Shown here: piece by piece, positions 1 through 44,078 of the stretch
Layout of the letters: each line of letters starts with the position of its first letter
Position numbering within the stretch: the stretch's first letter is position 1
Origin: Jaenimonas drosophilae
Lineage: Eukaryota; Euglenozoa; Kinetoplastea; Trypanosomatida; Trypanosomatidae
Reading direction: 5' to 3'
Length of the DNA stretch: 47,587 nt
NCBI GenBank assembly: GCA_030849065.1
Contig: JASAON010001527.1
Location: 1 to 47,587, forward strand
The notes under the pieces: model-generated
Seen by the model: the letters and a program-made list of their open reading frames with translations, nothing else
Database searches by the model: none
Told to the model about the DNA's origin: nothing
Program-made: the position numbers and the translations under genes

Positions 1-2200
1 CACTAAGATCACAGCCAATGGTGGGCACTGCACAGGGAAACAACTTTCTTCCGTCTCACCCGAATGGTCTTCCAGGTGTGATGGGAGGGTGGCCCATGAT
101 GCCTAATCGATGAATAGTCTCGTAGGACTATGTGAAGCTGCGATTCATTGCCGATTAGGTTCAAGGATTTCTGATGTTTCTGATTTGCGCGCTGTGTGAT
201 GTTCTTTTGTTTTCCATTGTAGCTCTTTCTTCCTCTTCTGTGGTTTTGGCATTGATGATGTTCGTGCTCTTATTTTCCCTCAGTACGTAGTGAGTCAATT
301 GGGGCCATTCGTTGTTTGTTTGGTCATTGCACCAGGAGCTCTACTGTTGATGCTGGTGGTATCATCGCAAGATGCTGTTTAGAATTGTTTGGCAGTGTGT
401 CTGGTGGCATTACATCCCCTGTATCTGCACTTTCTCTCTATTGAGACGTTTTGCAGGAAGCAATTGTTGTTTCGAAGATTCTGTGTTCATTTACATCGTG
501 TTTCAGCCCACAATCTTCTAATGCCTCGAGTATTCTTCGTGCTTTCCGTGAGAGTGTTGAGTGAGCCACTTGCGTCTTTCTATTTCCTCAGGAGTGTGAT
601 AGCGTGATGCAGAGGTTTGGCCAAAATAAACGAACTTGTGAATCAGATGACGACTTCTGTTGTATATTCTCGGTATTTTCGTGGTCGTCACGATTTCTAT
701 CTTCCGACTCTTTGGTGAAAGTGACGAAACGTCTCTCTGCTCCTCTGCATACTGAGCACGTTGTATGTTCACTGCTTCATTCCATGATTATGTTCAAACG
801 AAGGACTATGTCATTTGCATGTGAACTGGTTCACATTTGATGCAAGGATGGCATGTCGATGCGTGCAGCAGGACCAACGGTCACTCATCGTCTTGCCACT
901 GCGCAGTACCACCTGCGTGATCCATCAACGCGAGTCGTTGTGTCGTAACAACAAACTGATGTGCCCGTCATAACCATAATAATTGCCGATCTAAAGAGTT
1001 TGCTGATGCGGAATGCTTCCGATTCATTCCCTCCATCACACAACAGGAAGTCGAAATTCTTCCTCCTTTTATCCTGTACAGAAGTGTTTTCCCACGTGTT
1101 GCGCAAGAGAACTGTCTTGAGTGTCAAAGTTCGTGTTGTATCGCACCGCGTGTGAAAATGGTAGAAGATGTACTTATTGTTGCTTCTCGAGCCAATGAAG
1201 TGGAAGTCAGATCCTATTCCACCGTTGCGATGCACAAGTGGCTTTCTCGTTCAACAATTTTTCCGCGAACAGCGTACACGAGACCATGCACCGACAAGGT
1301 ATTCCTTTCGAAATTTATATTATCACTTCTTGTTTGTGTCTCTCTCTTCAAGCAATCCTGCAGCGTCACCGTACCCGATATTCTTCCATGGCAAGAAGTG
1401 CAATGGTCGGATGCTACTTGGATTAAGTCCCATTTCCCCTTGAACACCCCCCGTTCGCGTTGTCTTTTACTTGTTTTTGTTTTGTTTACCTACTGGAGGA
1501 AGTTGCAGGACTTTTTTTGATGGCAGAGATGAAGGGCCTGTCTATATTGTTCTACAGAGGCTCCAAACGTAATTGTGTGTGACGACGATGGCCTCGACGA
1601 GTCCGTGTTCGTTCTGTTGCAGCTTTTTGTTATGTACTGTTCAGCCGGAGAACGATACTGGTGAGAATCAATGCCTTCCTCCTCCCCCCACACACACTCG
1701 ATTTGCGCGGAGCGCTGACTCCCCATCGATCGTGATGTGACTACTGTATGTGGGTCTGATGCCTCCTGTCCTCAGTCGTCTTCATTCCGCCCTTCTTGAG
1801 TTTCAGTTTTTTTTTTTGGACCCCTTTCTTTTTGTCGTCTCTGAGAATGTTTTCACACATGTATCTCACCTGCCTTTACGCCATCTCCATGAGCGAGGCA
1901 CGCATCCGTGCAGCACATTCTAAAAGAGCTTCCCCTTTCTCTGATGTTAAGATTTCTCTCTTGTTACCTCAATTCATCCATTTCAATGATGACGTGCGCA
2001 TCATTTTCTCGTCAGATGAATTATGTGGAGACCAAGTGATTGACTCTCACATCATCTGACCACCTCCGACACTGTCCAAGGAATATGATCACTTTCATTC
2101 TATCATTTAGCAGTTATTGAAAACAAACCCCTACGCCTGTACGCTTTGGCATCCTAAGTGTGAAGCATGTGGAACTTTCCGTGAACAAACGGCGCATTAT
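1..2200. other. Intergenic or 3' UTR, no gene seen
   Basis: No frame on either strand holds a convincing protein; open frames are short, overlap one another and often begin at non-ATG codons. ATG occurs at ordinary density, the last one at 2167-2169. The stretch is probably the 3' UTR and spacer of a gene lying before the window. The only local structure I see is the nested inverted repeat at 102-159. Confidence 0.6.
102..159. repeat. Nested imperfect hairpin
   Basis: CCTAATCG (102-109) pairs with CGATTAGG (152-159). ATGAAT (110-115) pairs with ATTCAT (143-148), leaving TGC (149-151) as a bulge. Inside, TAGTC (115-119) can pair with GACTA (126-130) around a 6-nt loop, sharing base 115. The size is like a single-hairpin kinetoplastid H/ACA-type snoRNA, but no convincing AGA box follows the 3' arm, so a functional RNA is only a possibility. 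Confidence 0.25.
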
Positions 2201-2241
2201 CCTCTCTTCTTCTTCCTCGTTTTCTTTCTCTCTTAAAGCAG
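2201..2241 (+). promoter_or_regulatory. Predicted spliced-leader acceptor, outermost
   Basis: A near-pure pyrimidine tract (2201-2234, one G) is followed by AAAG and CAG, giving AG at 2237-2238 and 2240-2241. It lies about 70 nt downstream of the last ATG (2167) before the ATG-free leader, so it is the best candidate for the 5' end of the longest mRNA of the gene at 4996. Confidence 0.5.
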
Positions 2242-2876
2242 GTAATCTCCCCGCAACAACGCAAGCCTCTGTGCATTCGTATCGACGGGAGTACTCTCGC
2301 TGGTTTCTCACCTACGCCGGAAGTTGCTGCGCAGACTCGTGCCGTAGGTTGATAAACAGTCGCAAAACATAAAAGCAAAAACAAAAAAAAACTAAGCTTT
2401 TCTAGCAGTAGTGGTGTCCCTCCTTGCTGAGCAAGTGTTCGTGGCATAGTGGACAGTTCGTTTTCAGAGAACCCCACTCGACCACTCTCTTCGTTCTACT
2501 GTGGATATATACCTTTGTAGGCAACCTATATAACAGCCAGCCACAAGAGAAGCGTTTTCGCATCATCGAACCTCCGCCGTAGGACTAATCTACTGGTGGT
2601 CGATCACGTGTTAGACGACTTCTCATCACTGATTTTTTTTTCTTTTTATTGGATTCAGCTGTTTCCGTTGCTAAGCAAAGCACTCCCTCTTTTTCTCCTT
2701 ATTCCTCTTTGGTGTACTTTGGTTTGCTCCCTTCCCCCATCACCTCCCTCCCCTCTCGTGCGTTTGATCTTCCACTTTTTGTCGTGCTTCTGGTATTTGT
2801 TCTAAGTTTTCTTTTTTCTATCTTTCATTCTGGCCAACAAGCGGCGGCGACTCTAGCTGTGGAGTACTTATCGCCA

Positions 2877-2933
2877 CTTTTTTTTGCCACTTCTTTTTCT
2901 TTTTTCCTTTTTTTTTTTCTGTTCTGTTCGCAG
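2877..2933 (+). promoter_or_regulatory. Candidate internal spliced-leader acceptor
   Basis: About 50 nt of almost uninterrupted pyrimidine, including an 11-T run, ends in GTTCGCAG with AG at 2932-2933. It is the strongest polypyrimidine tract in the first 5 kb. Use of it would give a leader of about 2.06 kb, still without an ATG. Confidence 0.45.
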
Positions 2934-4528
2934 TTTTGGTGCATCATCAGAATTGTCTGCTCCGCTTCCCCTATCTTCCTACACGTACTTCTCCGTTGCC
3001 ACCCCTCTTGCCGCCCCACGACCCTTTTCCTCGTCCTTCCTCTACAACCGGCGCAGGTCTCCTCGACTGGCCATCTTGTCTACTGTTGCTGCCTGAGCAC
3101 TGGTGCAACATCAAACTCCGACGTATCACTGACTTAGAAGAAAGGTGAGGGCAGCGAGTGTCCAATTCTTTCAGTTGTTGCCTCTTTTTTTTGTTTCCGT
3201 CTTTGGCCAGACTGTCAGATCACATTGCGTACAGTTTCAAGAAGTCGTGAAAGGTGTTCTCAAAGAGAAAAGCACGTGGCTACTGGAATATTCACAACAG
3301 CTAGCATTTTTTTTGGCACGACCAACCAGGTTCTTCTTATTGCCGTGCCGCACCACTTTTCTCTGAGACTGCTTTTGTTCCTCACACCCAATTGCTGTGA
3401 GGTGTATTTGTTGATCAGACGTTGGGCTCAGCTCTCTTTCTCTGTGTGATCTGTCGTTCCCCACTGGTTCCTAGGTTGTGCTAAGCGAGCAACTCCAGTG
3501 TCACAGCAACTTCACTCAAGACAGTACCATCACAGAGGTGGAACACACGAGGTTGTGTGGTCTCCGATTATTGAAGAATCTGCATTTCTGCCCTTCTCAA
3601 ATTTGTGGCATCAAGGGGCAACACTTTCTCTCCGATTTGCACGTCAATTGCGGAAGGAGATCCGCATTTTGTCATTTGTTTTTGATCAGGGGCACCAATC
3701 CTGTGTGTCTATCTGTTTCTGGGCATTCATTCTACGTAGCTGCATCCAGTTTCTCATACGAGAATCTTGTGATCTGTGGACGCGACTCGTTGACAAGAGA
3801 GTTCAGTCATCTCGTAGTACTTCTGTTTGTGCCTTTTTCCGTTATTTTTTGTTTTGGAATACTCAGGGGTTTCTCTCTTCCCGTCTTTTTGCTGAATTTT
3901 GTGTGGACGTCTTGCATTGCGACAGTTTTTTGCGGATTTCATCTGGAACAGATTCTACGTCGGGATATACAGAAAACGTCCCTTCCACACAGGTGCCGCA
4001 TACTGCAGTCGCGTGATCCCATCTACATAGGCACCCGTTCTTGCTTGCGTTCACTACCCCAATTTCCTTGCTCGGACCTCCATACACCTCGCTGAGGACA
4101 AAGGTGTGAGTCATCAGATTTTGGTGTGCTTGCTTGCTCAACACTTGCTAGCACATACCCATTATTCTCATACCAGAGGCTTGAAATCAGGGGGTACCCA
4201 CATAGGCTCCACTGTGTGCTGTGAGAATACCCTTCCACCCACACTGATACTCAATATACTGTTTGCTCTAGCAGCGTCTTGCGGCACGCCATTGCGATCA
4301 ACGTGAAGTGGGTCCTTTTCTTTTGGACAAGGGAAGCCTCGTTTTTCACTCCTTCGTCCGTCGAAAGAGAAGCCAGATACATTGCAGGCGATTGTGAAGC
4401 CATCAACGTCTGCATTCCTTCGGTGTGCTGATTCAGTCGAAGGATTGCGCTGCACAGGACCAGAGAGAAAACAAGTGGGCTTTATATAGTCAGTAGATTT
4501 GATCAAAGTGCACGCATTGGCTACACCC

Positions 4529-4566
4529 CCCCTTTTTTTTACACGACTCCTCTTTGTGTTGTTCAG
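4529..4566 (+). promoter_or_regulatory. Candidate internal spliced-leader acceptor
   Basis: A C7T8-type tract followed by CTCCTCTTTGTGTTGTTCAG gives AG at 4565-4566. Use of it would give a leader of about 430 nt, closer to usual kinetoplastid length. Confidence 0.45.
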
Positions 4567-4836
4567 TTTCATCCACTCTTTTCTGAGTTATTCCTTTTTT
4601 CTTCTTTACGTCTATTTCTCACTTTTATTGGGGAAGAGTGAACTTTGGGTTTGCTGCTTCTGTTCTTTTCGTTGTCCTTTGCCACTCTCTCCATTGCTTC
4701 AAAGAGGATTAGTTTGCCAGAAATCTCACGCGCAATCCTTTCCTTCCTCGCTCTAAACAGCAAGTACATTCATACGGTACCTTTGTATTTTCCTTGCTGG
4801 TTTGTGGGCCGCATTCTTCTTCTTCACGTCACGCCA

Positions 4837-4859
4837 GCCTTCTTTTTCGATTCGTCCAG
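4837..4859 (+). promoter_or_regulatory. Candidate proximal spliced-leader acceptor
   Basis: CCTTCTTTTTCGATTCGTCCAG places AG at 4858-4859, 137 nt before the start codon at 4996. No ATG intervenes. This may be the main acceptor if the long leader is not used. Confidence 0.45.
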
Positions 4860-4995
4860 TAATTTCCCATATTTGGTTTCCTTCTTTTCTTGTGTCGTGA
4901 TTTCCTATTTGTGGGTGCTATTTGGGAGACTTCAAAATTGACGGTGACGTAGAATTCCAAAAAGTGTGATCGCTGAGCAAAGCCACTACACCAAC

Positions 4996-7900
4996 ATGGG
5001 CGGCATTCCTTCGAGGGAGTCACCATCCCTCTTCTCGTACTTCAGAGGAAGTTATGAAGTGGGTCTAATTCCACTCACAAAACAATTTTTTGGGAGAGAG
5101 GATGAAGAACCCCGACACGCAGTTGGAAGTTCAAGTGGTCAGAATCAGTACAAAGGAGTGAACCGTGGACAGTTGCGGCGCCAATTGCTGCTAATGCGTC
5201 AGGATCCTGCGGTACGATACTCTAATTCCAGGGATAGTCATAGCATCATTCAATCAATTATGGCCTTTTTGGAGAAAGAAGACAAGAAAACTACTTCGTT
5301 GGGCGATCTCCCGACAGAGAAGGATGTTCACACGAGCCCCTTGCGCAGTTCTTCTGCCGCAACATCCTCTGAAGCTCTCCCAGAAAAGGGGGAACGGGGA
5401 ACTGCTACTGCCGCCGCCAACGAAATCTCTTTGGGAGAACTTGGGGAGGATCTTGAAGCGGCGCTTCATGACTTGGTGAAAGACCCGGCGGAAATTGCAC
5501 GTGTGAGGGAAGCGATTTGGAAGCATTACTGGAGTGTGATGCCCGAGAATCACTTTACTGAAAGTGACTTGGATGCTTTTTTGAATCTCGTTGAAGCCAC
5601 CTTATATGATACAGATCGAGACATGCTTCTTGATCCCTTATACCCCAAGCCTGATCATGCTCAGCTTGGTGAAAACTCATCATCGGCATCCCGACCATCT
5701 GCCTTTTTCCCAGTTCCTTGCGCACTGTGTCTCGCGTATCCGGAGGGGAAGGAGCGTGATGGCTGTTTTACATTGGATGGCCGAAACATCAACATTATTG
5801 GCTACTTCGGCCTCTTGACACAAGACATGGAACGCGCTCTAAAAGTTTCAAAGCGTGATTGCTCATCATCGAAGTCACAGATGAATGGGGGCGAACAGGT
5901 ACAACAGAACGGTAGTGCAGATGTGCCCAAGCATGTGTTTTCACTGCCCAAGAGTAGGACCTCTTTGGACACATTGGACTCAATGCGAGCGGATGGCGCA
6001 GTGTACGAAACGTTGAACAAACCAGAAAACTACAAGAGCGCAGGCGAGCATGAACTGTTCCTCAATACAGCCATCCTTACATCAGCAGGCGATCGTACCC
6101 TTGAGCGCGTTCTCGTTCTTGCAGCTGTTATGCTTCGGCAACAGTTTCATGCAGCCTACCGCCGCTATCTGATTCAGAAAAAAGAACTGTCGGCGTGTGC
6201 GATTCCGTCTGGCGCGATTGAATCCACTTCTGGGCTCAATCCACCCGTTCATATCATCACCGCGCCGCAAGCCAACCCGGTGTATGCCACTTCATCAATC
6301 CCGGGAGTGTCTATCCCTACTTCAGCGCTATCCAACCCTCTGCTAGGATGCACCCTCCCGCCTTTGCCAAGTAACATGTTTACGCCACTTCCACTAGGTG
6401 GAAGTCCAGAAGCAATTGCGAATGCAGCCATTACCCATTCCTACTTTCTTCGTCCGGGAAAGCCTGATAGCTCCACCTCATCATCGCAACTGCAGTGGAT
6501 TGAGGGAACTGGAAGCCAACATTATGTGTGTGAGCAAGGAGGTGTCTCTGGAGGGCTGATTTCAATATCTGCTGCGGAAGAAGACAGCATGTCACAGGCT
6601 TTAGCCAACCGTTTGGAGCAGCTTGCCGTTTCTATTGAGATTGCCAGCAACAACTATACATCCTTGAAGTCGCTGACTGAAAACTTCGCCTTCCTGCACT
6701 GCCAGGTAAGCCTAGATTCCGACGATGCTTGCATGGAACTGGTGGATCTTCCAGTAATCTCAAGCAATACTGCGGTAAGCTTTGAGAAGCAATCCAACAA
6801 CAACAGCGTCAATAACATTAGTTCATACAGTGTTCAGAACGCTAGTATGAGCAGCAAAAATCATGCCATGGCTGGTGAGCCAGAAGGGATGAGCAGCCGC
6901 AGTATGAGCCATGATGTCCACCTGGACTCCGTCGGAAGCCCCGTGCAGAACAGAGAGGATGGTCCGTCGGAGAAACCGCAGGATCACTCTGCTTTTCAAC
7001 TCTCTCCATCCTCTGCTATAATTCTACATATGCAGCCTTCCTACTTCCGTCAGTCCTGCATGTGGGCCAGCTGTCTGTTTCACTTTCCTGCTCGCCTCCT
7101 CGGCCATTGGGTGCAGTATAAGCTCAAGGATGAGTGCGACCATCTTCGTCATGTCCTTCAGAACAAAGATATGCTCATTGCTCAGTGGAGGCAATTCCAC
7201 AGAGAACACGCGCTCAGTTACTTGGGTGAGCACACCGTGCGACTTCTGCAGCACGTCCGCGCACTCCAAGATGAGACAGAGAGGGCACGGACACTCCCAA
7301 TCACCAATTGGGACCCAGATAACTTGTTCATCAATCTTGATGGAAGAAAGTATGCACTGCACAACAGCCAATTTGGAACCATGCTTATTGGAGTTCGCAC
7401 CCCTCATGCAACTGGCGCCAACACGTCCAGCTCCAACAACATTGGATCATTCTCCGGAAAACGAAATGGAAACAGCTCGTCTGCACTGGATTTTATGCAC
7501 GAACATGCAAATGACCTGAATGCGCAGCGCAATCGCAATGCCCCTATGCACTTTCCGGCAGGTGTTGCCTACAACAACGGCGCGACCTTTCTTGCTGCTG
7601 CTCCACAGACAATGCATATGTCGCCACCGCAGTTCCACAATGTGACGACCATGGCGGGTCCTACGGGTCCTGCAGCGGTCCCCACCGCTTTGCCGGGCTC
7701 TGTGGCAATGATGATGGGCCGCACTCCTCCGCAGGCGCACGGCGTTGTACCACAGCCCATGTATCCTGCATTTCAGGCCTCTCCGGGGGCAATTCCGTTC
7801 ACCGTGGCCAGCGGCAACACTGCGGCGATGCCAATGGGAGCACAAAACGCATATATCATTAGCCCAGGCTCCGGTAAAATTACTCCAGGCATTGCTACCG

Positions 7901-8790
7901 GACCGCCGTCCAGCACTGCGTCACCTGCACAAAACATCGTATATATGGATCAATCCCATACCATGATGATGAACGGCATGCGAATGATGCTGCCGACTTG
8001 TTCTTCGCAGGCACTCAACCCCGTCTCCCAGCCGCCCGTATCGTCTTCCCCACAGGCGTCTCCAGGGAATCTGGTTCTGGCTGGCCCTCTACCCACCACA
8101 GCGAATCCCAATACTTACCACGACCCAAGGAATTTCGCACGTACTGCCCTTCCCCAAATGTCGTCATCCCCAACGGGTGCCCCCTTCTTCCCACTTCAAA
8201 CAGCTGGTGTGCCAGCCCCAACAGCGTACTACCTCGGCTCCATGGGAGAAACTCCCGGAAACAAAGCCTCAATGCCCAGTGTGGTCTCTGGCAACGATCT
8301 CACTCCAGGCATGTCGTCCTTTGAACTGCCTTCTGTCTTGCCTACCCGCCCAGTGGCTGACTACACTGGAGGCCACAGTAACAACCCCAGTAACAACAGC
8401 AGTCGCCACACTCTTCCGTCCACTACTGTTCTCCATCCCTCGTTTCAATCCCCTTCTGTACCCCTAATGGCATCCAGTCCAGGTCAGTTTGTGAGTAATA
8501 CTCAAAACATCACGAATACTGTAAAACCTGGTGGAAGTGCACCTCCACAATTCACTTACACCCTGTGCAATGGGGTGCCTGTCATGTGTGTGCCACAGAT
8601 GGATGCACAGGCTGTGCCAACGCGTGTGGACACAACCAGTGGCACAGTTCCGGCGAACCCACTTCAACCGCCTCAGTCACAGTCTTCGACATCGCAACAT
8701 CCGATGTATACGCTCTCCATGTCCCCCCCTGGCGGCTTTCAGCAACCACAGTCAGCTCCATCCTTCATGTACCAGCCAACCTATTTTTGA
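4996..8790 (+). CDS. Predicted N-myristoylated protein, 1,264 aa, unknown function
   Basis: I do not recognise a family. The open frame begins at a GTG (4966), but the first ATG for 2.8 kb is at 4996 and gives MGGIPS, which fits the N-myristoylation consensus (Gly2, Ser6), so that start is chosen. Membrane anchoring is inferred. Residues 1-300 and about 350-400 look folded. A compact block at about 681-802 is rich in Trp, Cys, His and aromatics (around SCMWASCLFHF and ITNWDPDNLFINLDG) and is the best candidate domain. About 803-1264 is low-complexity Pro/Ser/Thr/Met/Asn/Gln sequence, probably disordered, and resembles tails of RNA-binding or scaffold proteins. No transmembrane helix or signal peptide is evident. 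The ATG-free leader suggests special translational handling. Confidence 0.9.
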   Translation: MGGIPSRESPSLFSYFRGSYEVGLIPLTKQFFGREDEEPRHAVGSSSGQNQYKGVNRGQLRRQLLLMRQDPAVRYSNSRDSHSIIQSIMAFLEKEDKKTTSLGDLPTEKDVHTSPLRSSSAATSSEALPEKGERGTATAAANEISLGELGEDLEAALHDLVKDPAEIARVREAIWKHYWSVMPENHFTESDLDAFLNLVEATLYDTDRDMLLDPLYPKPDHAQLGENSSSASRPSAFFPVPCALCLAYPEGKERDGCFTLDGRNINIIGYFGLLTQDMERALKVSKRDCSSSKSQMNGGEQVQQNGSADVPKHVFSLPKSRTSLDTLDSMRADGAVYETLNKPENYKSAGEHELFLNTAILTSAGDRTLERVLVLAAVMLRQQFHAAYRRYLIQKKELSACAIPSGAIESTSGLNPPVHIITAPQANPVYATSSIPGVSIPTSALSNPLLGCTLPPLPSNMFTPLPLGGSPEAIANAAITHSYFLRPGKPDSSTSSSQLQWIEGTGSQHYVCEQGGVSGGLISISAAEEDSMSQALANRLEQLAVSIEIASNNYTSLKSLTENFAFLHCQVSLDSDDACMELVDLPVISSNTAVSFEKQSNNNSVNNISSYSVQNASMSSKNHAMAGEPEGMSSRSMSHDVHLDSVGSPVQNREDGPSEKPQDHSAFQLSPSSAIILHMQPSYFRQSCMWASCLFHFPARLLGHWVQYKLKDECDHLRHVLQNKDMLIAQWRQFHREHALSYLGEHTVRLLQHVRALQDETERARTLPITNWDPDNLFINLDGRKYALHNSQFGTMLIGVRTPHATGANTSSSNNIGSFSGKRNGNSSSALDFMHEHANDLNAQRNRNAPMHFPAGVAYNNGATFLAAAPQTMHMSPPQFHNVTTMAGPTGPAAVPTALPGSVAMMMGRTPPQAHGVVPQPMYPAFQASPGAIPFTVASGNTAAMPMGAQNAYIISPGSGKITPGIATGPPSSTASPAQNIVYMDQSHTMMMNGMRMMLPTCSSQALNPVSQPPVSSSPQASPGNLVLAGPLPTTANPNTYHDPRNFARTALPQMSSSPTGAPFFPLQTAGVPAPTAYYLGSMGETPGNKASMPSVVSGNDLTPGMSSFELPSVLPTRPVADYTGGHSNNPSNNSSRHTLPSTTVLHPSFQSPSVPLMASSPGQFVSNTQNITNTVKPGGSAPPQFTYTLCNGVPVMCVPQMDAQAVPTRVDTTSGTVPANPLQPPQSQSSTSQHPMYTLSMSPPGGFQQPQSAPSFMYQPTYF

Positions 8791-9701
8791 TGTAGTTGTT
8801 TAAGTGCGCGTCAACACTTTCGCTGAGGAAAGTCACAAAACAGCATTTGATGGATGCAAATTGCGCACCTCAATTTTATATGTTGATACTTTTTCTGGGT
8901 TTTCATGTACTGCCGTTAACCGGCTGGCGATTGATGGCAACCTCTCGCATGGGGATGACACTTAACGGATATCAGTGACTTCGCCATTCCCACGCCTTCT
9001 GATGCTTCTTTTTCATTCCAATAAGGGCATTGACCTGCACGTGAAGCTCTCGTGTGTTTGAGGGCGATCTCCTCACAACATTCCCCTCTATTCAACGACT
9101 CCTCTGAGATGGAGCGACACTTTTGCTGAAACTGTTTTATTTTTGTTGTTGCTTGTGCCTGGCGTATTGCCATGTTTTCCGTTTTTCTATATGCTTCTGT
9201 TGGTTATGAAGGTTCTTTCTCTTTCTCTCTTCAATTTCTGTGATCGCCGATTGGTGAGGTATTGAGTCATGGGTGTGGTACAACATGCAGGAGGCCCTCC
9301 ATTTTCGCCTCCCTCACAGTATTGTGTTGTACGTCCTTACGGTTGCTCTCCCTGATTACTGAGGATGGTACACCCTGTCTTCTTTCAACGCCTCTCCAGT
9401 TTCTTTTTTTGGGAGTTGAGAAGTGACCTCAGGGTATCTCCCCTGAAAGGGACACTTGGTGTATTGGTTTTTTCCTGTGAAGGTTTCAATGCTCCAGAGT
9501 ACTTCGCAACTATTTCATTTGCCGTTTTTTCTCTCCATGCCAACACAACTCTCTAATGCATGGTTTCTTCTTTTTGTTGTTTTCTTTTATAATCCTGCGC
9601 GTACTGTTTTCTTTGGAAGTGGAGCTCTTTTACTTTTGTTGCCTGGTGATTCCCCGAACATGGCTCTTTACAGTAATTTCCATGACAAGGCGATTTTATT
9701 T

Positions 9702-9725
9702 CATTGAGTGTCTTGACACTCAATG
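9702..9725. repeat. Perfect 11-bp stem-loop
   Basis: CATTGAGTGTC (9702-9712) and GACACTCAATG (9715-9725) are perfect reverse complements separated by TT. As RNA the loop must open by at least one pair. It could be a 3' UTR element of the upstream gene or a protein-binding palindrome. Confidence 0.6.
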
Positions 9726-9733
9726 GTCATGCG

Positions 9734-9952
9734 ATGCTCACCAAGAGCCGTTGGAACGTCAAGGGAAGTGCACCTTCTCCCAAGAATACAGTTCCATCAA
9801 TTCTACCTTTCTTCCCCTCCCAGCAGTTTTCTGCTGTAGCCCGCTCTTCACAGCGCCATTTTCTTGGCGGAAGAGATTGGCTCGTGCCATCAAATATCAA
9901 CGTGCTCACCGATGCGGCAGCACGTGGTGGAGTTGTGATTGACATGAAGTGA
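9734..9952 (+). CDS. Possible small protein, 72 aa
   Basis: An ATG-started frame gives a basic 72-residue protein ending DAAARGGVVIDMK, with amino-acid and codon composition closer to the neighbouring genes than to the T-rich spacer. Against it, the other two + frames are also open across the first part (ATGs at 9682 and 9723), several upstream ATGs separate it from the nearest candidate acceptor (AG 9672-9673), and I recognise no family. It might be a real small gene, a decayed fragment or chance. Confidence 0.3.
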   Translation: MLTKSRWNVKGSAPSPKNTVPSILPFFPSQQFSAVARSSQRHFLGGRDWLVPSNINVLTDAAARGGVVIDMK

Positions 9953-10937
9953 AATTCATTAGCTCCAGGATGTGAATACGATGACTATCATCTTTTCATT
10001 TGTACATGCTGCCGACTTTGGTGTTTTTGCCTTCCACCACCCTGAGTGACCCCCCCTACCCTTCTTACTGAGCTGCTCCCTTGATGCAGTGAAGTGCGAA
10101 ATTGCTGAGCTTCGCTACCCTCGCAATCAAGCACACAGGCACGACTGCCTTTTGCGTCGAAAACGTTTTCTGTGTTTCTCGCCCCGCTCGTGGTACAGAA
10201 TTGTTTCTACATCCTGCACAATTGGCAGGCCAAACAGAAAACTTTGGGTGCTCTTCAGATGCTGTACCGTTCAGATGCAGTGGACTCAACGACCCGATCT
10301 GTTTTCCTCTCTCCCCTTCCTATGAGGGGGGATGCTGAGCCCCTGTGGGCTCACCATGGGGGAATATATTGTGTTGTTTTTTACTCTCGTCGCTGACGCT
10401 GACACCGTCGTTCTGACGTTACTGGTGCCGTTGCTTGATTCCTGTTTTGCTGAACTCCGCTGTGGAGCGCACAATTGGTCGCGTGTATACACAGAATGAC
10501 ATACTTTTTTTTTACCAGGAACCTCTCTGACGGTGGGAAACACCGCTAACAACTGCCTACAATAGGAAGGGGAGTTTTGAGGCGGAGCTTTCAGCCTCTG
10601 TGAAATCTACCTAACTGGAGTGCACCACACACCTGACCGACACAACCGGTTGGGACAGGAGAGATCCGCTTCTCGTCAATAACGAAACTCAACCAGATAT
10701 AAACCAAGCTGCTACTCTGCTGCGCGCAGAAGGAGCCTCATTTTTTTCTCGTGCTCACTCAGGGATCTCTCTTCATGCCTTTTCAGTAGTTAGACCACAT
10801 GTGGTCACCGTAATACCTTGAAATGTAGCCTCTCACTGCGAGGGGAAAATTTGTGGAAGTGCCTCCCTCTCACCACCTGCAGGCGCTTGCTGCCTGCGCC
10901 GTGAACGTGTGTAGCTGACCCCTCTTCAGAGTCTTCA

Positions 10938-10978
10938 ACTCCCTGTTTTCACTTCTTCTTCTTCGTTTCTTCTCACAG
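10938..10978 (+). promoter_or_regulatory. Spliced-leader acceptor of giant kinase
   Basis: The tract CCCTGTTTTC..TTCTTCTTCTTCGTTTCTTCTCACAG ends with AG at 10977-10978. The next 280 nt to the start codon at 11259 contain no ATG, although ATGs occur just upstream (10774, 10799, 10823). Confidence 0.7.
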
Positions 10979-11151
10979 TAAGGGAAAGAAATTACGCGCA
11001 ACGTGTACTACGCGTTAGCACAACGCATTGCACATCGCCTTCTACTAGTAGTAGTACCATTCGCTATACTCGTGCTTTTTCGGTCCCAGAGGAACTTGGA
11101 CACATAGAACAGCTTTGCAGCGAACTAAGCATCCTGCTGCTGGACCGGATA

Positions 11152-11170
11152 GATCTCTCATTGAGAGATC
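11152..11170. repeat. Short palindrome in kinase 5' UTR
   Basis: GATCTCTCA (11152-11160) and TGAGAGATC (11162-11170) are reverse complements around a single T, 88 nt before the start codon. It could form a small hairpin in the leader mRNA; the central pairs would have to open to make a loop. Confidence 0.5.
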
Positions 11171-11258
11171 ATCATTGCATCCTGCGCTTTATCTCCACTC
11201 TCCGTCAACGTGACCGAAACGTAAATCACGTCATTCATTATAGCGCTGGCTCCTCCTC

Positions 11259-14200
11259 ATGGACGGCCCCCGTCCTGCTGCGGCAGCAGAAGGGCCGGTT
11301 CGGCGCCAAAAGGCCAGTCGAAGCAGCAGCAGTGGAAGCTCAAGCAGCTCTGAAAAAGACATTTTCTCCACTGCTGTAGTCATCTCTCGGCAAGGAGATG
11401 TAGTACCAGCACCCCAACGAGAGCAGAACTCTCGACATCATACTCCTCACCGCCAACGTGTAGCGGTACAGAGCAGTACCGGAACCACATCGGTGATCGC
11501 CACAGTCAGTAGTAGTCGTCACGCCAAACGGGAGCACGGCAGAAAAACATTCGCTTCTTCTCAACTAGGTGGTGGAAGCACGATTGTCCGCGGCCCCCCG
11601 CTGGACCCCGTCACAGCTCACAGCTCTCCAACAAAACCCAGCGCGCCGTCCTCTCCGTCGTGGAGCAACTTGAATGAAAAATCTCCAGCAGGGGGCTCGG
11701 CGGGGGACTTGGTTGGCTTCTCCATGGTGGATGCAGCCTCTTCCATGACAACGTCGCGCGCAACAGACGATCCAGAAAGTGGTCTTCCCTCTGTGGCTCA
11801 TCATCACCACACCAAAGGGAGCGGCCATCATCACTCCCACCGTCATCGTGGTCGCCACGTACCACATCATTCACCCGATGAACCTCCTTCACATCACTCC
11901 CACGCGGACGGCGACCAACACCCCCTAGCAGATTGGTCAGCGCAAACACATGAGGATGGTGAAGCGAGTAGCAAAGACACTGCTGTGGCCAACACACATC
12001 CACGCACTGACTCCTCCGGAGGCACAATCTTCGCCGCAACCCCTAAGGATCCAGCTCCCATCTTTCTCCGGAAGGAAGACCGGAAGGCTTGCATCCTGGA
12101 TGACTCCAGCAGCATGACCGATGAGGCCTACGTGGAGCACCACAAGCTACATCATGTTATTGCTAATCTCAGTGCAGCCTTACTGAAGCAGCGACCAGAG
12201 GACCACGTGGCCTTCTCGTTGGAGTGGCTGAAGCGCCACGCACGCGCCACGAGTGCTCAAAAGTCACGACATCAAAGCACTCGCTCACGACGCAGAGCTG
12301 CTGATGACCCAGACAGTGGAAAGAAATTGGAGGACGTCAACGCGACGAGCATTCGTCGAATGCGGCGTAGGCGGGTCAATGGTGGAGATGCCCGAGGATC
12401 ATCGAGCCGCGTCGTCTCGGCAAAAAGCTCACAACTTCCAAGCCGTCGCCACTCCTTCCACGTCACGGAGAGTGCTACAGGACCGAGCTGCTACTCCATT
12501 CAGGAGGGTAGCCAGTGTGCGCCAGACCGTTCCTTTATGTTCTCGCTTTCCGCTCAACCACTGGAGAACTCATCCGCCCCACCCACTGGAAGCAGTGGCA
12601 TTGGCAGCCCCAACACCAAGAGCGTGCCAGCTGACATGCCTCCCCAACTGCTTAGTTCCCCTGCTTCTTCGGTCGCCACCTCTCTTGCACGACAGACCAC
12701 CCCGACAACGTCGATGGGTGGCGGAGACTTGGGTGCAACCATGACCATCAGCGCTGACCTCTCTTCATTGAGCTCAGGTGCAGCGTGCACCAACTCACTC
12801 CCCCCGACTGAGTCTCCAGTGGGTTCGCGCGGCAAAGAGAGCCTCATTCTGCCTACCCCAGCAATCGAGGTATCCACAGGGGAGTTGCAGGTGAGCTTAT
12901 CCTCATCCAAGACGAGCACCATCGGCATCTTGCGAACAAGCGCCCCCGTTGCCGGGTCAGATTCTGTGTCAGGGAAACCATCCCCAGTGAAGCCTGTGAC
13001 GACGGAGGGTGAGAGTGGGGAAGGTGACGAGGGGGAGGGGGAGGACGATGAATGGGCAGGCATGGCACAATTTCAGCCTGTCATCAGCATTGACGAAATG
13101 ACGAAGGAGGTGGTTGATCACCGCAGCTTTGTGTCTCCAAACACCTCCACCGGAGCCTCACGTCGCCCCGCTGGCGGCGGATTTGCCTTCCCTACACAGG
13201 GCCCTCTTCTCTCCAACTTGGTACCACCCACAGCCCCAGCCTCCACCTCATCGCTGCGGCCACTCGCCAACGTTCGTGGCGCCACAACCAATGCAAGCAG
13301 CTCACAGATTGCAGCGGTGATTGTTCCGAGCACAAATACTACAGCGGGTCTTGCCACGCCCAACACCTCCAGCCCCTCCTTCCAGTCACCTGCAGTCGCT
13401 CCGCGCAACACAACCTTCCCAACCGGCGTTAAGCCTGCGGCAAACAACCGTGTCAGTCTCAATACAATGGCCAGCACAGCCGCAGCAGCCGCGGAGAAGA
13501 GTATCAACACCTCCATTGGTGCTGTGCGCACCTCCTCCGCGAGTACCATCTCGAAGGGCAACAACCAATCGTTCTTGGCGTCTCTGGCCAATCCCATGTC
13601 CCCGACTTACTCCGCAGGCGTCAACGTCAGCGCCGATCTCGCGGGGCTGTCGGAGTCACTCCGTGCAATGACGGATGTACGTGGAGGCTTGAAGGTTGAT
13701 GGAAAGTCCGTCTTGGGTAGATCCGGAGAGGAAAATTCCGGAAGCCCCACGGGGGTACCGCCGTCACTACGGCCAGATGTAAGCAAAAGTGAGGCTTCGT
13801 CGTCGCACGCACCGGCAAGCCCGCCTCCAGTGGTGACCGTCACGCGATCCACGACACTCGATGATCGCAGCATCCATCTCTCCACAAAAGATGGGGTTGG
13901 AGCGACCCTGGAGGGTGGCTATCGCTGCCCTTGTGCGGCAGCTCCCACAGCAACGCCGACGCCTGTGAAGCGAACCATTGTCTGTGACTCTACATCCTCC
14001 TGCTTGTCTGCTCAGGTTCACGCCGATGTGGTGAATCGCCTATACCAAATGATCAGCGAGCTTCCCCCGAGTAAGCACGCCGCCACAACCGTCTTTTTAG
14101 AGGGTCTTCTTGCTACTCGATCTGCATCTGCCCCTGAGTCATCCCTGTCAAGCAGCAACTCGACGAGCGGCGTCGCGGGGGTTCGACGTGAAGCGCTCCA

Positions 14201-17200
14201 CGCCTCCACCCACAATGCCGCCGCTCTGCTCCGAGCTGCTGGAGATGCTACGGGTGATGTGGATCCAGACATTAGTGGGGACGAGGATGCGGATCTCCAA
14301 ATGTGGCAGCCCATGGTTGCATCCCCCGTCCACGGCAACAAGACTGGTCATGGAGCAATTGGCTACGATGGAGGAGCACCCCTTGTGGGCATCGTCAGTG
14401 CTGGTGCCAAGGGTGGAGGTGATGCAAGTCACAGCCCATCTGTGGAAGCCATCGTGAAGGATGCCCTGAGTCAGAGCGTCTTGAAGACGCTACCATCGAC
14501 GCACCGTCCCGACGCTGGAGGTCATGCGAACTTGGTGAACTCGCCCACCACGAGTACCTCCATGCGTCTCATGCCCACCACGAACCCGGTCACAGCACGG
14601 GAAGATTGCACCCCTCTTCATGCAGACCCTGTTGTTGTCACGAACGTGGATGCGCTGAGCGGCAACCGCGACCCCCTCTCGGCCGCCACGTCAGAAGACG
14701 CCTCACCTCAATCCGTGTCCAAGATGGAGACCGCCGTCTTCGAGGTGGCCTCTGATGGCTCAGCTGCTGCAGCCAAGCTGGCACGCTCTACACGTGACTC
14801 ACCCGTTGTCGTTGGCAGCCCCTCTCCTGTGGAACAGAGCAGTGACAGCGAGCATGAGCTGGGGATGTTGAGCAGTGCGACGCAGGAGTTTGATGTAAAA
14901 GGTGAAAGTGACTTGATTCCATCTGGTCCACCACCGAAGTCTCCATCGCAGCACCAAGCAGCACGATCACAGAAGCACTCATCACGACGCCGTCGCAGAC
15001 GCCACTCCCGCTCGCGCGAAGCCACGGAGCGCGTAACACACGCCAATGGATCAAGCCACAACAGCTTCCCCGTCACCTTATCCGCCCCTTCAGATGATGG
15101 CGAAGACTGGGATGAGTGGCAGCCCACCGACCGAAGTAACAGCGAGGTGCCACATGACGCAGGTCCCTTGGGTTCTAGCTATCCATCCCATGCACCTACC
15201 CTCCTCCCACTTCACTCAACCATGATCCTATCAACGACCAGCGCCAACTCATCCACAATGGATCTCCCCCAAATCACATGCACCACCGAGGCTCTTTCGG
15301 ATACAGAAGGTGCACATGTCACAGGTGAGGATCCATCCGACTTCCCACTCTCTCTTCCCGTCAAACGACGCAGTTACTCACGCGGGAGCACTCCAGTATC
15401 TCCATGTGCGGATGGGGAGACCTCCTCCACACGCCACAAGCGACGCCGGCGTCACAATCCTAACAAGTCCGCCATGGACGATGACCTGCACTCGTCACCA
15501 CATCGCCGGGTTTCCCACCGGATCTCACTTCCACGTGGCTTCAGCTCCCTATTCTACCGCAGTAAAGGACGTGGCGAACGACGTGGAAGTCTCCTGGATG
15601 CGGAATCTCCCCAGACGAGCTTCATTCAAGAGCGTGGTGACAGCACCATACCACTCAACGTACCCAACTCCAAGGATTCGATGGATGACGGTTCAATGGC
15701 AGAGAACTCTCCGTTCCAGATGCTCTCGGCTGAGCGCCGCCAACGACGCGATGGGGAGGCCTCCCCCACAAGTGATTCTATCCTGCATCAGTTTCAGAAG
15801 CGCGTGCTACACCCCAACACCGCACCTGTGGTTATTGCCATCTCCCAATTTTCCACCCAGGAACACCTCTTTGTGGATGAGGTGGTGGTACTCCGCCGGG
15901 CGTTGCGGACCATTCAGCCCTTTTCCTCCATGGATGATACGCTGCGGGAGATGGTCATGCGCTCCATGACTCGACGGGTCTGTCACTTGGGTGAACTGGT
16001 CTCACAGCAGGATGGGCCACCTTCTGTGGAAGTCGGAGTGGTTGTATCTGGAACGCTCTCCGTCCTGCGTGATGGTGTTGTGTCTGGAACCATAACCGAT
16101 GGCCAATGTGTAGGCTCAACAGAGCTCTCGCAAAGCACTGAATGCCAGGAAACCATTCGTGTGGAACAAGGATCGGCTGTACTGTACATGATTAGCCACA
16201 ACTACCTGGAGACGCTGCTTCTCTTGGAGAAGGATGTACGACGTTTCTTCTTCCTGCAGTACATCTGCAGGGATGGGCTCCTTCAACGTCTGCCATCTTC
16301 TACAAAGGTGCACCTCGCCGATTCTTTTCGCGTGGCGCAGGTGAGTGCTGGTGATTCCATCGTGGTCCAAGGAGCCACAGTGGATAGCTTCTTCTTTGTT
16401 CTCTCTGGGGAGGCTACGGTGACGGCACCACAACATTTTCTTGCTCAGGCTGAGTCCCCACCGATGGGCTCGGAGAAGAGCAGCACCTCGCACATGGGCG
16501 ACCACCCTGTCTACTCACACTCATCCATTCTTCGCACCCCATCCACCTCCCACACACCGCCGTCCTTGGTGACGAGGGACTCCCTCCACCACCGCACGTG
16601 TGGTCAGACCATTGGTGAGGTGGAGATGTGCTTTGGCTACCCAAGTCTCCTGACCATCGTGGCCACAACCGACGTGGTGGTTGCGCGGCTGAGTCGTCTG
16701 TACTTTAACATGATGGTTGGGCCTCAAGGAGCAGAGGCATTGCGGATGGCGATTGCATGTAGCTCAATCTATAACCACCTTGACTGCATCGCCCCAAAGG
16801 AGCTGCGTTTGGAGCTCCTTCGCAAACGACGCGGTGCAGGTCAACGCCGTCATTCTGCCAATGCCACTACCCGACCAGGTATCGGTGTGCTGCCCAATAC
16901 CATTCTTCGGCAAAGTGCTTCCGTATCTGGCTTAGGTGCGCTCTCGAGCTACGGCGCATCGGATCGAACGGCCTCCAGCACCAGGCTGAATGGTGGACGG
17001 GGAGGCCCGAGCTCCTCGCGCTGCCGCACACTTTCACCTGGCGTGACACTTCCACCATCCAAGGCAACGGAGGAGATGAATGCAGCAGCCTCGGTGACGG
17101 ATCTGGACCGTCTCAGCACCGCACCGCACCCGCATTCCGTACATCGCCGATCCACCCTTCACCGCACGATCCGTGCATCGGACATGCCTGGAGCGAGCCA

Positions 17201-20200
17201 TGGTGCATTGGCGGCCACAAAGAACGGGGGCGCCAACATTGGTTGGAAACACGTCAGCACAGAAGGAGAAATTGTCTTCTCGGGTAGTCGCAACCTGTAC
17301 CGGTTCCCCGCGCATGCCCTTCGTACCAACAACAGCATCATGATTGCAGTGGTGGTGGATGGCACCATCATTCGTTGGAACTCTATTGCACAACGGGTGA
17401 CTGGCTATGCCCCCTTCGAAGTGATTGGCCAGAGCATATTTGATCTACTATCCAACGAGGACCACAAAACGAGGATGCGGGAAGTGCTGGCGACGGCGAA
17501 GCGGTACGCGGGCAATTGGGATGACTACATTGTGGAAAAGCTCGAGAGGCAACACATCTTCAGCTTCCGCCAGAATATGGATCTCTATCAGGTGGGTCTG
17601 GCGCTGAGCATCATTCCTTCCAACTCCGCAGCGTCGGCAGAGGTGGTGCTTCTCTTTGGGCGTGCAGCAAAGTACCGCGCCGCAAGCAACTACGCCGCCG
17701 ATGTAGCCCGATGGCTAGATGACTCTCTGAAGCCGCAGCTACGCCACTTCCAGCGTAGTGTGGCACAACTGGAGCTCAATGATTGGCTTGTTACTCCAGA
17801 TGATGCGATGCGTCTACGTGGACACCTCGACGCCTGTCTTGCCATGGTCAACCAGTTTTCCCAGTTTTCTCTCCTCAATATGGAAACCGTCAATGAATCG
17901 TGGCGTCCATTGCGTCTTCCGGTGCTGATGCAGAAATTCACCGTGGAAGCCTGCAGCCTGGCTCAGAACGCCAACTGCACCTTCTACTGCAATGCGGAGG
18001 AGGTGACGCCCAGGAAGGAGATCTTCATGGATGTGGCTCGTGTGCTTTCTGTGCTCCGAATGCTGGTGACGGATGCCATCGACTCCTCCACCCGAGACGG
18101 AGGACGCTCCGTGGCGATTGAGCTCCACGTCACCTCACTTCGTCCGGGTGACACGGACAGCCGGGCTTCACGGGGTTTGACTGCATCCACTCCGGCCCCA
18201 TCTTCACCTGAGCCAGGCTCCACTGAGGCCTTTGACTTACCTGGGGCTGTGCGGAAACCTACTGGCTTTGCAGCGGCAGCTGACGCACCCGCCTCACCCC
18301 CCTTGGGGCCGCAGCCAATTGTCAATCCCACCACACACGCAGAGAACGTGGCAACCGTCACGCAGTTGGAGAAGGAGGTCAATGGCACACTGCGTCAAAT
18401 CACTGACCTTTCACTGCGTCGTATCCGCTTCGAGATGCGTGACAACGGGCCGTCCATCCGTGACTTTGCCAACGGCACCGGTCCTTCCTCTCCCGACATC
18501 CTAGTGGATGGCTTCACGGACACAGTGGTAGCCTCGCTGCCGCCTCCTGCTCCGCTCACCTCCCCCGTTGGGTCGGACTCGTCAGCGATCATGATGCCAG
18601 TAGGCGTGGCGTCATCGAAGCCCACCCAGCCGCCTGCACGCTCACAGCGTGGAATGAATCTGGCGCATGTGGAGCAATTGGTTTCTTCCATGGGCGGAAC
18701 CTTTTATGGCTTTACACGCCCCGAGGTGGATGGCAATATCATCCGAATGGAGCTACCTCTGCTCCTTGTACCTGGTGGATCATCGGCACCTATCGAGGAA
18801 TCGCCAGAAGAAGATGAGGAGGAGCTCAATCAGACCGCCGGCGGGCCGAATAAGGGCCGCACCTTCACCGTCATCCTCGCCGATAGCAACCGAATGCAGC
18901 AGAATCAGCTCTGTCAGGTTTTGTGGGCCCGTCAGCACGCCGTGGTGCCGGTGAAATCCTACAAGGAACTAAGACGTAAGATGGAAGCCAACACGGCAGA
19001 TATCTTGATTGTGGACCCTCTGCAGCTCATCATCACTGCCGAGGACCATGCGGAGCTACAGGGAGTGGATCCCTTTGATGATATCCGTGACCGTTCTAGT
19101 CGTATGGTTCTCGTTGTTCTTGCAGGCACCGACTTGACGGACTGGCGTATTCAGAAACTGTTGGACCGTAACGCGGTGATTGAACTGCCGAAGCAGCAGG
19201 GCTCCGGCGCATTGGTGCACATTGCCATGCAGGAAGCCGAGCGCATGGTGACAGAGATGCGTGAAGAGGAAGAGCGTATCGATTTACTTCGCCGCGCCTT
19301 CTCCAACTCCGCCGCGGAGGGCCGCCACAAGATTGGCCGCCTTCTCGGTCGCGGTGCATTTGGAGAGGTGTACGAAGTCGAGGACACTCTCACTGGAGGT
19401 CGTCTAGCCATGAAGCGCATGAAGCTGAAGGATGGGGTCCTGGCAGACACCATGGTTCAAGAAATCCTTGCCATGACCTCCTTGCAGCATGAAAACATCA
19501 TTCACTACTTCTACTGTGAGAAAGAAAGCGACTCACAGCTTCGACTATACATGGAGCTAGCTTCGGGTGGCACCTTGCGCGATACCATTCGCCAACGTGG
19601 AGGAGTCGGTCTCCCCTTTGACGACATTGTCCATCACTTGACAGACATTTGCCGTGGTCTTGCCTACGTGCACTCACAGCATTACGTACATGCGGATCTG
19701 AAGAGCGCAAACCTACTTCTTGGAACACGTGGACGAACGAAAATTGGTGATTTTGGTACCGCCAAGCGACTCCGTCCGCGGGAACAGCTCTACGCAATGG
19801 CTGGCACACCGCAGTACATGGCGCCGGAAGTCCTCAATGCGGATGCCGACCTGATGTTGGGCTACGACTACAAGGCAGATATCTGGTCACTCGGATGCAT
19901 CGTCATGGAGATGGCCACAGGCAACCCACCATTTGCCCATTTAGACCGTACTCACGGTATGGGGATGATCAAGTACCTCAGTGAGCTCACCGACGCACCG
20001 GATCTCTCCTGTCTCAAGACAGGCAATCAGCTGATTTATAAGTTTGTGAAGGCCTGCCTGCAGGTGGACCCTCATCAACGTCCGAGCGCGCAGGATTTGC
20101 TTCACTTGGATATTCTTCAAGGAGCTGTCTGTAGCAACCGTGCGGAGTGCAATGTCAAGCGAGCGGCAATGTTGTACACGCTCAATAAGTACGCTGCGAT

Positions 20201-43764: not shown

Positions 43765-44078
43765 CTCTCATTGGTGGTCATGGTTGGAGGTGTGCTTCGG
43801 CCGCGATGCAACGCAGTCACACAGATAATGCGTGTCGAGCATTCACTCCGTGGCATCAGAATACAACATCATTGATAAATCAAACCTGTTGGAGACGTTC
43901 CTGATATTTCGTGGAAATGTGTGAATGTGTTGGGCTCATCGATATCTTTGTCTTTTTATTCCATCTTTTTAATGTTCTGTTAATCACATTAATTTGTCGT
44001 TGTAACGTAGGCATTGATACACTCAAGGAAAAGACACACTTGGGAACCGTGCTCTGCGTTGTCTCGAGTGGAATTCCA
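43765..44078. other. Spacer and 5' leader of second Elf1-like gene
   Basis: No gene seen. A long T-rich tract (from about 43941) ends in GTTGTAACGTAG with AG at 44009-44010. The open frame extends upstream to a start at 43911, but that part would be hydrophobic sequence encoded by the tract itself; no ATG lies between 44011 and 44079. Confidence 0.6.

What the first reader, a model, noticed from the sequence alone, without database searches (positions are those of the whole stretch)
2170..4995. A 2.8-kb stretch with no ATG on the + strand, ending at a start codon
I read every line: no ATG occurs between 2169 and 4996, while CAT (ATG on the other strand) occurs about 45 times and stop codons are plentiful. 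At this composition a few dozen ATGs would be expected. A good spliced-leader acceptor (AG 2238/2241) sits just after the last ATG. The simplest reading is an exceptionally long 5' UTR, or a nest of alternative 5' UTRs, purged of upstream starts so that scanning ribosomes reach the ATG at 4996. Kinetoplastid 5' UTRs are normally a few hundred bases or less, so this would be a novel regulatory leader.
Basis: partly seen in the sequence, partly recalled or inferred. Interest (0 to 1): 0.87.

Follow-up and report, generated by a model that had tools for sequence, protein, structure and literature searches.

The report
Giant AUG-free leader in a trypanosomatid
A trypanosome-relative's gene is preceded by 2.8 thousand bases from which the start signal ATG, and only that signal, is wholly missing, which looks like an extraordinarily long messenger-RNA leader kept clear so that scanning ribosomes can reach the true start.

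Summary
Confirmed: no ATG on the + strand between 2167 and 4996 (gap 2829). Dinucleotide shuffles expect 27.8, the window's own intergenic rate about 56. CAT is at expectation (47 against 46.9), the other 63 triplets all occur, and near-cognate starts match intergenic controls. In 159 kb of the same genome (under 1% of it), both strands, the next longest ATG-free run is 521. The desert ends at a real start: the conserved N-terminus of a protein found here only in trypanosomatids. It begins just upstream of a strong pyrimidine tract with AGs at 2238/2241. The + frames tested do not score as coding. Best explanation: a trans-spliced 5' leader of up to about 2.75 kb, probably with shorter alternatives, purged of upstream AUGs so that scanning reaches 4996. 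Kinetoplastid leaders rarely exceed 250 nt (PMC6597758), and in T. congolense longer ones carry more uORFs (PMC6084854). This would be an extreme new variant of upstream-AUG avoidance. Transcription, spliced-leader addition and the full-length isoform are inferred. Orthologous DNA was out of reach; three extended protein records hint weakly at conservation. The role (damping or gating translation) is inference.

The parts
2170..4995 (+). ATG desert: 2826 bases without ATG in any + frame
2200..2234 (+). 35-nt pyrimidine tract, the only one scoring 14 or more between 1985 and 2618; predicted to serve the most upstream spliced-leader acceptor
2237..2241 (+). predicted spliced-leader acceptors, AG ending at 2238 and at 2241
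   Evidence: sequence; not tested by RNA data
2242..4995 (+). predicted full-length 5' leader, 2754 nt plus the spliced leader
   Evidence: inference
2683..2841 (+). largest pyrimidine-rich tract with first AG at 2841: candidate alternative acceptor
2867..2933 (+). pyrimidine tract with AG at 2933: candidate alternative acceptor
2956..3056 (+). pyrimidine tract with AG at 3056: candidate alternative acceptor
4526..4636 (+). pyrimidine tract containing an AG at 4566 and followed by an AG at 4636: candidate proximal acceptors
   Evidence: tract, AG 4636; sequence, (AG 4566)
4814..4859 (+). pyrimidine tract with AG at 4859: candidate proximal acceptor, leader 136 nt
4996..8790 (+). gene downstream of the desert: 1264-aa protein whose relatives found here are all trypanosomatid or unnamed, MGGIPSRES N-terminus (N-myristoylation-like, recalled), no Pfam family
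1..2169 (+). upstream DNA without a recognised gene (longest ATG-started ORF 120 aa, no Pfam match) and with normal ATG density (54 ATG); contig start; upstream 3' UTR, intergenic or strand-switch DNA not decided

Best explanation
The desert is the 5' untranslated leader of the gene at 4996. The + strand precursor is trans-spliced at the acceptor at 2238/2241 in a functionally relevant share of transcripts, and probably also at several acceptors further down, giving a nested set of leaders of up to about 2754 nt. Ribosomes load at the capped spliced leader and scan to the first AUG, which is at 4996 in every isoform because any AUG arising in the leader is selected against. The length of the leader, its pyrimidine tracts and the possible choice among acceptors probably damp or gate translation of the protein. 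Shown: ATG-specific, strand-specific absence; conserved start codon at its end; acceptor-like site at its beginning; no coding signal in the frames tested. Inferred: transcription, splice-site use, scanning and the regulatory role.
For: ATG 0 against 27.8 (shuffle) or 56 (intergenic rate), CAT at expectation. Near-cognates GTG, CTG, TTG, ACG, ATA, ATC, ATT are at 0.86-1.13 of the control rate, so only the real start codon is avoided. 428 triplets of the leader are one substitution from ATG, among 8262 possible substitutions, so ongoing purifying selection is needed. Next longest ATG-free run in 159 kb, both strands, is 521; next longest upstream of 53 recognised starts is 436. The genome shows ordinary upstream-ATG avoidance: with this gene left out and only frames other than the gene's own counted (so that choosing the first in-frame ATG as start does not bias the count), 33 ATG in 3250 positions (10.2 per kb) within 100 bases of 52 starts, 124 in 6833 (18.1 per kb) at 101-400; CAT 27.7 and 22.1. 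The N-terminus is conserved in orthologues and the main frame is open only 16 codons upstream. The most upstream segment 2242-2658, present only in the longest isoform, has 0 ATG against 8.2 (control, P 3e-4) or 3.6 (local dinucleotides, P 0.03). Pyrimidine tracts scoring 30 or more: 5 in 2200-4995, 1 in 1-2199, 0 in 8791-11258. Upstream-start avoidance fits published data that T. brucei mRNAs with translated uORFs have about two-fold lower translation efficiency (PMC4210626, passages read).
Against: No RNA, spliced-leader or ribosome data. A review says that in T. brucei 5' UTRs over 200 nt lowered a reporter (PMC6597758, passage read), so such a leader looks costly. Several downstream tracts score higher than the one at 2200-2234, so proximal acceptors may dominate. 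The extreme 5' segment taken alone is only moderately significant on local dinucleotides. Orthologous DNA could not be reached. The spliced-leader RNA gene itself was not found in the held assembly by two recalled patterns. TAA, TTA and TGA are also at about 0.54-0.57 of the control rate in the leader; part of the TGA deficit is the missing ATGA, the rest is unexplained.
Confidence: 0.78

Rival explanations
1. Nested alternative leaders with no functionally important full-length isoform: many acceptors between 2238 and 4859 are used, the longest isoforms being minor, and ATG avoidance is the sum of selection on all of them.
For: 15 pyrimidine tracts scoring 14 or more, each followed by an AG, lie in 2200-4995, including very strong ones with AGs at 2841, 2933, 3056 and 4566/4636; T. 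[quoted passage not shown]
Against: Selection acts only on what is in translated mRNA; the outermost segment 2242-2658 is also ATG-free (0 against 8.2 or 3.6), so the longest isoform must matter at least somewhat. This is a variant of the best explanation rather than its opposite.
Confidence: 0.35
2. A separate non-coding RNA, or an upstream processed transcript, that avoids ATG so as not to be translated, followed by a short ordinary leader for the gene at 4996.
For: Processed RNAs without an ORF from intergenic regions are described in trypanosomes (PMC6597758, passage read); acceptor-like sites close to the gene exist.
Against: The desert runs without a break to the very start codon and no ATG marks a boundary between two transcripts; 1-2169, also without a recognised gene, is not depleted (54 ATG).
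Confidence: 0.08
3. Core-promoter-type ATG desert at a polycistron start: several transcription starts, as postulated for mammalian ATG deserts.
For: No gene was recognised upstream in the contig and the 16 ORFs that I took as genes are all on the + strand; mammalian promoters show ATG depletion around the start site (PMC2672154, passages read).
Against: Trypanosomatid mRNA 5' ends are set by trans-splicing (PMC6597758, abstract as listed); depletion stops sharply at 2167 near an acceptor-like site and does not extend upstream of it.
Confidence: 0.06
4. Composition, mutation bias or chance.
For: The region is T-rich and A/G-poor, which lowers the ATG expectation from about 56 to 28.
Against: 0 against 27.8 +/- 4.3 after dinucleotide shuffling, CAT normal, all other 63 triplets present.
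Confidence: 0.005
5. Hidden coding sequence with a non-AUG start in the desert.
For: Stop-free frames of 182, 188 and 206 codons exist at 2589-3137, 3450-4016 and 3475-4095; stop triplets TAA and TGA are below the control rate.
Against: Codon scores of these frames are -0.21 to -0.27 bits per codon against +0.12 for the held-out CDS 4996-8790; a coding frame would not purge ATG from the other two frames.
Confidence: 0.02

Closest known systems
Trypanosomatid trans-spliced 5' UTR with upstream-AUG avoidance
   Same: Pyrimidine tract plus AG, first AUG is the start, avoidance of upstream ATG near starts (in this genome); uORFs go with lower translation in T. brucei (PMC4210626).
   Different: About 2754 nt against a T. 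brucei median of 32-47 nt (PMC2916883), 127 nt in T. congolense (PMC6084854) and 'rarely exceed 250 nt' (PMC6597758). In T. congolense uORF number rises with leader length (r 0.88; median 1.1 per 100 nt in uORF-containing leaders); here zero. Caution: the table of PMC2916883 also lists 153-198 genes with 5' UTR over 2 kb and 235-356 with major 5' UTR over 2 kb per stage, which I could not inspect, so long leaders as such may not be unique.
ATG deserts of mammalian promoters (Lee et al. 2005, known here only through passages of PMC2672154)
   Same: ATG depletion, explained by several mRNA 5' ends that must all give one protein.
   Different: That is a statistical depletion about 1 kb upstream and downstream of transcription starts; this is a total absence on one strand, only downstream of a predicted splice acceptor, at one gene.
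Toxoplasma BFD1 leader
   Same: Protozoan 5' leader of about 2.7 kb on one mRNA (PMC11697163, passages read).
   Different: BFD1's leader holds 37 predicted uORFs and is reported to be translated cap-independently under stress; this one has no AUG, which points to plain scanning.

Membership tests
trypanosomatid trans-spliced 5' UTR | polypyrimidine tract followed by an AG at the 5' border | tested here: met
   tract 2200-2234, AG 2238/2241
trypanosomatid trans-spliced 5' UTR | spliced leader joined to the RNA | not testable with these tools
   no RNA reads; spliced-leader gene not found by two recalled patterns
trypanosomatid trans-spliced 5' UTR | ends at the start codon of a real gene | tested here: met
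   conserved N-terminus, held by 19 of 20 relatives' records
trypanosomatid trans-spliced 5' UTR | usual length, under about 250 nt (a usual property rather than a strict criterion) | tested here: inconclusive
   predicted 2754 nt from the outermost acceptor; an isoform from AG 4859 would be 136 nt; no RNA data
uORF-controlled leader | at least one AUG upstream of the main start | tested here: not met
   0 ATG in 2170-4995
mammalian-type promoter ATG desert | ATG depletion on both sides of the 5' end | tested here: not met
   1-2169, upstream of the predicted 5' end, has 54 ATG; holds only if the 5' end is near 2241
mammalian-type promoter ATG desert | TATA-less promoter with several start sites | not testable with these tools
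   no transcription-start data
cap-independent (IRES-like) leader | initiation without scanning from the 5' end | not testable with these tools
   local folding energy is like that of 1-2238 (-18.6 against -19.1 kcal/mol per 100 nt), no sign of unusual structure; ATG avoidance would not be needed (inference)

The most novel reading that the evidence does not exclude
A conserved trypanosomatid scanning gate: an mRNA whose leader is held at kilobases of length and kept totally AUG-free by selection, so that leader length and splice-site choice, not uORFs, set how much of the downstream, possibly membrane-anchored protein is made. It could be among the longest AUG-free scanning paths in any eukaryote.
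Probability: 0.35. Interest if true: 0.85.

Novelty: new variant of a known kind. Interest (0 to 1): 0.7.

Why it matters
In trypanosomatids gene control is largely post-transcriptional, and leaders are thought to be short. A leader about ten times the usual upper length, without a single AUG, would suggest that a 43S complex can scan, and selection can preserve, nearly 3 kb in a natural mRNA. It would give a clean natural test of scanning processivity and of AUG-only start recognition (near-cognates are not avoided), and would point to a regulated gene of unknown function shared by several trypanosomatid genera.

Tried and rejected
Chance and composition, hidden coding sequence, known RNA families and tRNAs (none), repeats (mostly pyrimidine-tract similarities) and unusual structure (none) gave no other explanation. 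Orthologous DNA: scans of viral contigs with the protein and with alignment A2 and of genome contigs with A2 gave no relative; metagenome contigs was not scanned. A second copy of the leader or gene in the genome: 1 match each, the window itself.

Extended gene models as a proxy for orthologous leaders: of 20 protein records found, 3 carry sequence upstream of the conserved start. P0016 has 0 Met in the 529 codons before the start, against 7 in the 139 before those (Fisher P 1.5e-5). But Trp, the other one-codon residue, is also scarce there (1 of 529, where 8-10 would be expected from the window's non-coding rates), and the model may be stitched from predicted exons, so this is only a hint. 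P0003 has 144 Met-free codons after its first Met, P0001 25. The extensions show no convincing similarity to the window's leader (best E 0.017).

Literature on long AUG-free trypanosomatid leaders: searches. I saw no such case in the listings, but 4 of these 9 returned zero papers (36, 42, 49, 68), probably because the prime sign in 5' UTR breaks phrases, so absence from print is not established.
Full report
WHAT WAS CLAIMED AND WHAT IS THERE. A direct count agrees: ATG at 2167, then at 4996, none between. The other strand is normal: CAT occurs 47 times in the stretch, against 46.9 expected from 500 dinucleotide-preserving shuffles, whereas ATG is 0 against 27.8 +/- 4.3 with a minimum of 15 in 2000 shuffles. 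ATG is the only one of the 64 triplets that is missing. Against the ATG rate of the window's other intergenic DNA plus 1-2169 (165 in 8361 bases) the expectation is 56, Poisson P 6e-25; with the lower dinucleotide expectation P is 8e-13.

HOW UNUSUAL IT IS IN ITS OWN GENOME. The window is a whole contig (C236) of an 18.79-Mb assembly in 370 contigs. I sampled 159,268 bases (the window plus 14 stretches, L003-L016; L001, L002 and L017 left out as repeats of the window) on both strands. The longest ATG-free run is this one, 2829; the second is 521. Upstream of 53 recognised start codons (ORFs of 200 aa or more) the second longest ATG-free distance is 436, before the giant kinase gene at 11259 in the same window. 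The sample is under 1% of the genome, so other deserts may exist.

WHAT IS AVOIDED IS A START CODON. Relative to the same-window intergenic control, GTG, CTG, TTG, ACG, ATA, ATC and ATT are at 0.86 to 1.13 of the control rate. Their excess over the dinucleotide model (GTG 66 against 39.7, ATA 28 against 13.9) is therefore ordinary for this genome's non-coding DNA and need not be a trace of replaced ATGs. TAA, TTA and TGA are at about 0.54-0.57 of the control; the missing ATGA explains part of the TGA deficit and I have no explanation for the rest. 428 triplets in the leader are one substitution from ATG, so keeping it clean needs continuing selection.

THE DOWNSTREAM END. The ORF 4996-8790 encodes 1264 aa. 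Relatives in Leishmania, Porcisia, Novymonas, Leptomonas, Phytomonas, Trypanosoma cruzi and Angomonas, with unnamed records 20 in all, were found in three searches, each of which scored only the candidates sharing most words. 19 of the 20 records hold the N-terminus, of the form MGxxPSxE; P0014 starts later, and those columns are at least 90% conserved in the alignment. The main frame is open only 16 codons further upstream, so ATG 4996 is the true start. The protein has no Pfam or NCBIfam family and its family no PDB match by sequence; a model of the T. cruzi orthologue is too poor to assign a fold. A tree puts the window's protein outside the Leishmania-Leptomonas group, Phytomonas and T. 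cruzi, with the highest identity to Angomonas (43%), but its branch is unresolved; I do not name the organism.

THE UPSTREAM END. The last ATG at 2167 is followed by a 35-nt pyrimidine tract (2200-2234) and AGs at 2238 and 2241. With the upstream ATG rate (54 in 2169), a selection boundary should lie within about 120 nt of the last ATG; this tract is the only one scoring 14 or more between 1985 and 2618. Further tract-plus-AG sites lie inside the desert, several of them stronger: AG at 2841, 2933, 3056, 4566/4636 and others. Tracts scoring 30 or more number 5 in 2200-4995, 1 in 1-2199 and none in 8791-11258.

ONE LONG LEADER OR A NEST. Selection against an ATG works only in mRNAs that contain it. 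The outermost segment, 2242-2658, is in the longest isoform only, and has 0 ATG against 8.2 (intergenic rate, P 3e-4), 6.3 (base composition, P 2e-3) or 3.6 (its own dinucleotides, P 0.03). So the longest isoform probably matters, but this is moderate evidence; one long leader together with alternative shorter ones is what I think most likely.

NOT CODING. Stop-free frames of up to 206 codons exist in the desert, but their codon scores are negative (-0.21 to -0.30 bits per codon for the six + frames tested), against +0.12 for the held-out CDS and +0.16 to +0.26 for four CDSs of the training set. No Rfam family reached its cut-off and no tRNA was found in the window, and local folding is like that of 1-2238.

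MECHANISM. The precursor is trans-spliced at 2238/2241 and alternatives; ribosomes load at the capped spliced leader and scan; every isoform presents 4996 as the first AUG. Across the genome sample ATG is depleted in the 100 bases before starts (7.4 and 8.4 per kb in the two 50-base bins against about 18 per kb at 100-400). Part of that is built in, because the first in-frame ATG was taken as the start; counting only the other two frames and leaving out the gene at 4996, it is 10.2 against 18.1 per kb in 52 genes, with CAT not reduced (27.7 against 22.1). So the same rule that thins ATGs in ordinary short leaders has here cleared nearly 3 kb. If the leader must be long, it must also be AUG-free, since at the local rate it would otherwise carry 28 to 56 AUGs. 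Why it must be long is not known; damping or gating of translation, through length, bound proteins or acceptor choice, is my inference.

COMPARISON WITH WHAT IS KNOWN. From passages read: T. brucei 5' UTR median 32-47 nt (PMC2916883; its table also lists 153-198 genes with 5' UTR over 2 kb and 235-356 with major 5' UTR over 2 kb per stage, which I could not inspect, so other long leaders may exist); most kinetoplastid 5' UTRs under 100 nt, rarely above 250, and 5' UTRs over 200 nt lowered a reporter in T. brucei (PMC6597758); T. brucei genes with translated uORFs have about two-fold lower translation efficiency (PMC4210626); in T. congolense uORF number follows leader length, r 0.88, with a median 1.1 uORFs per 100 nt in uORF-containing leaders (PMC6084854). 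Mammalian ATG deserts are statistical depletions about 1 kb either side of transcription starts, explained by multiple starts giving one protein (PMC2672154, citing Lee et al. 2005, which I did not read). Toxoplasma BFD1 has a 2.7-kb leader with 37 predicted uORFs and cap-independent translation (PMC11697163). The present case may work like an ATG desert driven by several mRNA 5' ends, but does not extend upstream of the predicted 5' end, so it is not a member of that class as defined.

CONSERVATION. Orthologous DNA was out of reach. As a proxy, 3 of 20 protein records are extended upstream of the conserved start; together 698 codons before the start (529 + 144 + 25) hold no Met, but Trp is also scarce in the largest one and that model may be spliced. 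I count this as a hint only.

LIMITS. No RNA evidence; spliced-leader RNA gene not found by two recalled patterns, possibly because contigs under 10 kb seem not to be in the held assembly (C1, apparently the smallest, has 10,105 bases).

Noticed in passing
window 11259-20453: 3064-aa protein with cyclic-nucleotide-binding, PAS and protein-kinase domains, preceded by a 2468-bp intergenic region and the second longest ATG-free upstream run in the gene sample (436).
   Followed up: partly
window 43285-43764 and 43917-44690: Two neighbouring genes both match the Elf1-like zinc-ribbon family; the second match is weaker.
   Followed up: no
window 302-1534: No GGG on the + strand for 1232 bases; with 64 triplets examined this may be chance in G-poor non-coding DNA.
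   Followed up: no
window 2242-4995: TAA, TTA and TGA are also at about 0.54-0.57 of the intergenic control rate, only partly explained by the missing ATGA.
   Followed up: partly
protein P0016 (no window coordinates): A gene model of a relative reads 668 residues upstream of the conserved start, the last 529 without Met and with 1 Trp; its upstream DNA deserves a look.
   Followed up: partly
window 34203-35096, 35441-39541, 44896-47070: SCO1/SenC-like protein, a 1366-aa protein with a TruD pseudouridine-synthase match, and a protein with an RNase III domain match.
   Followed up: no
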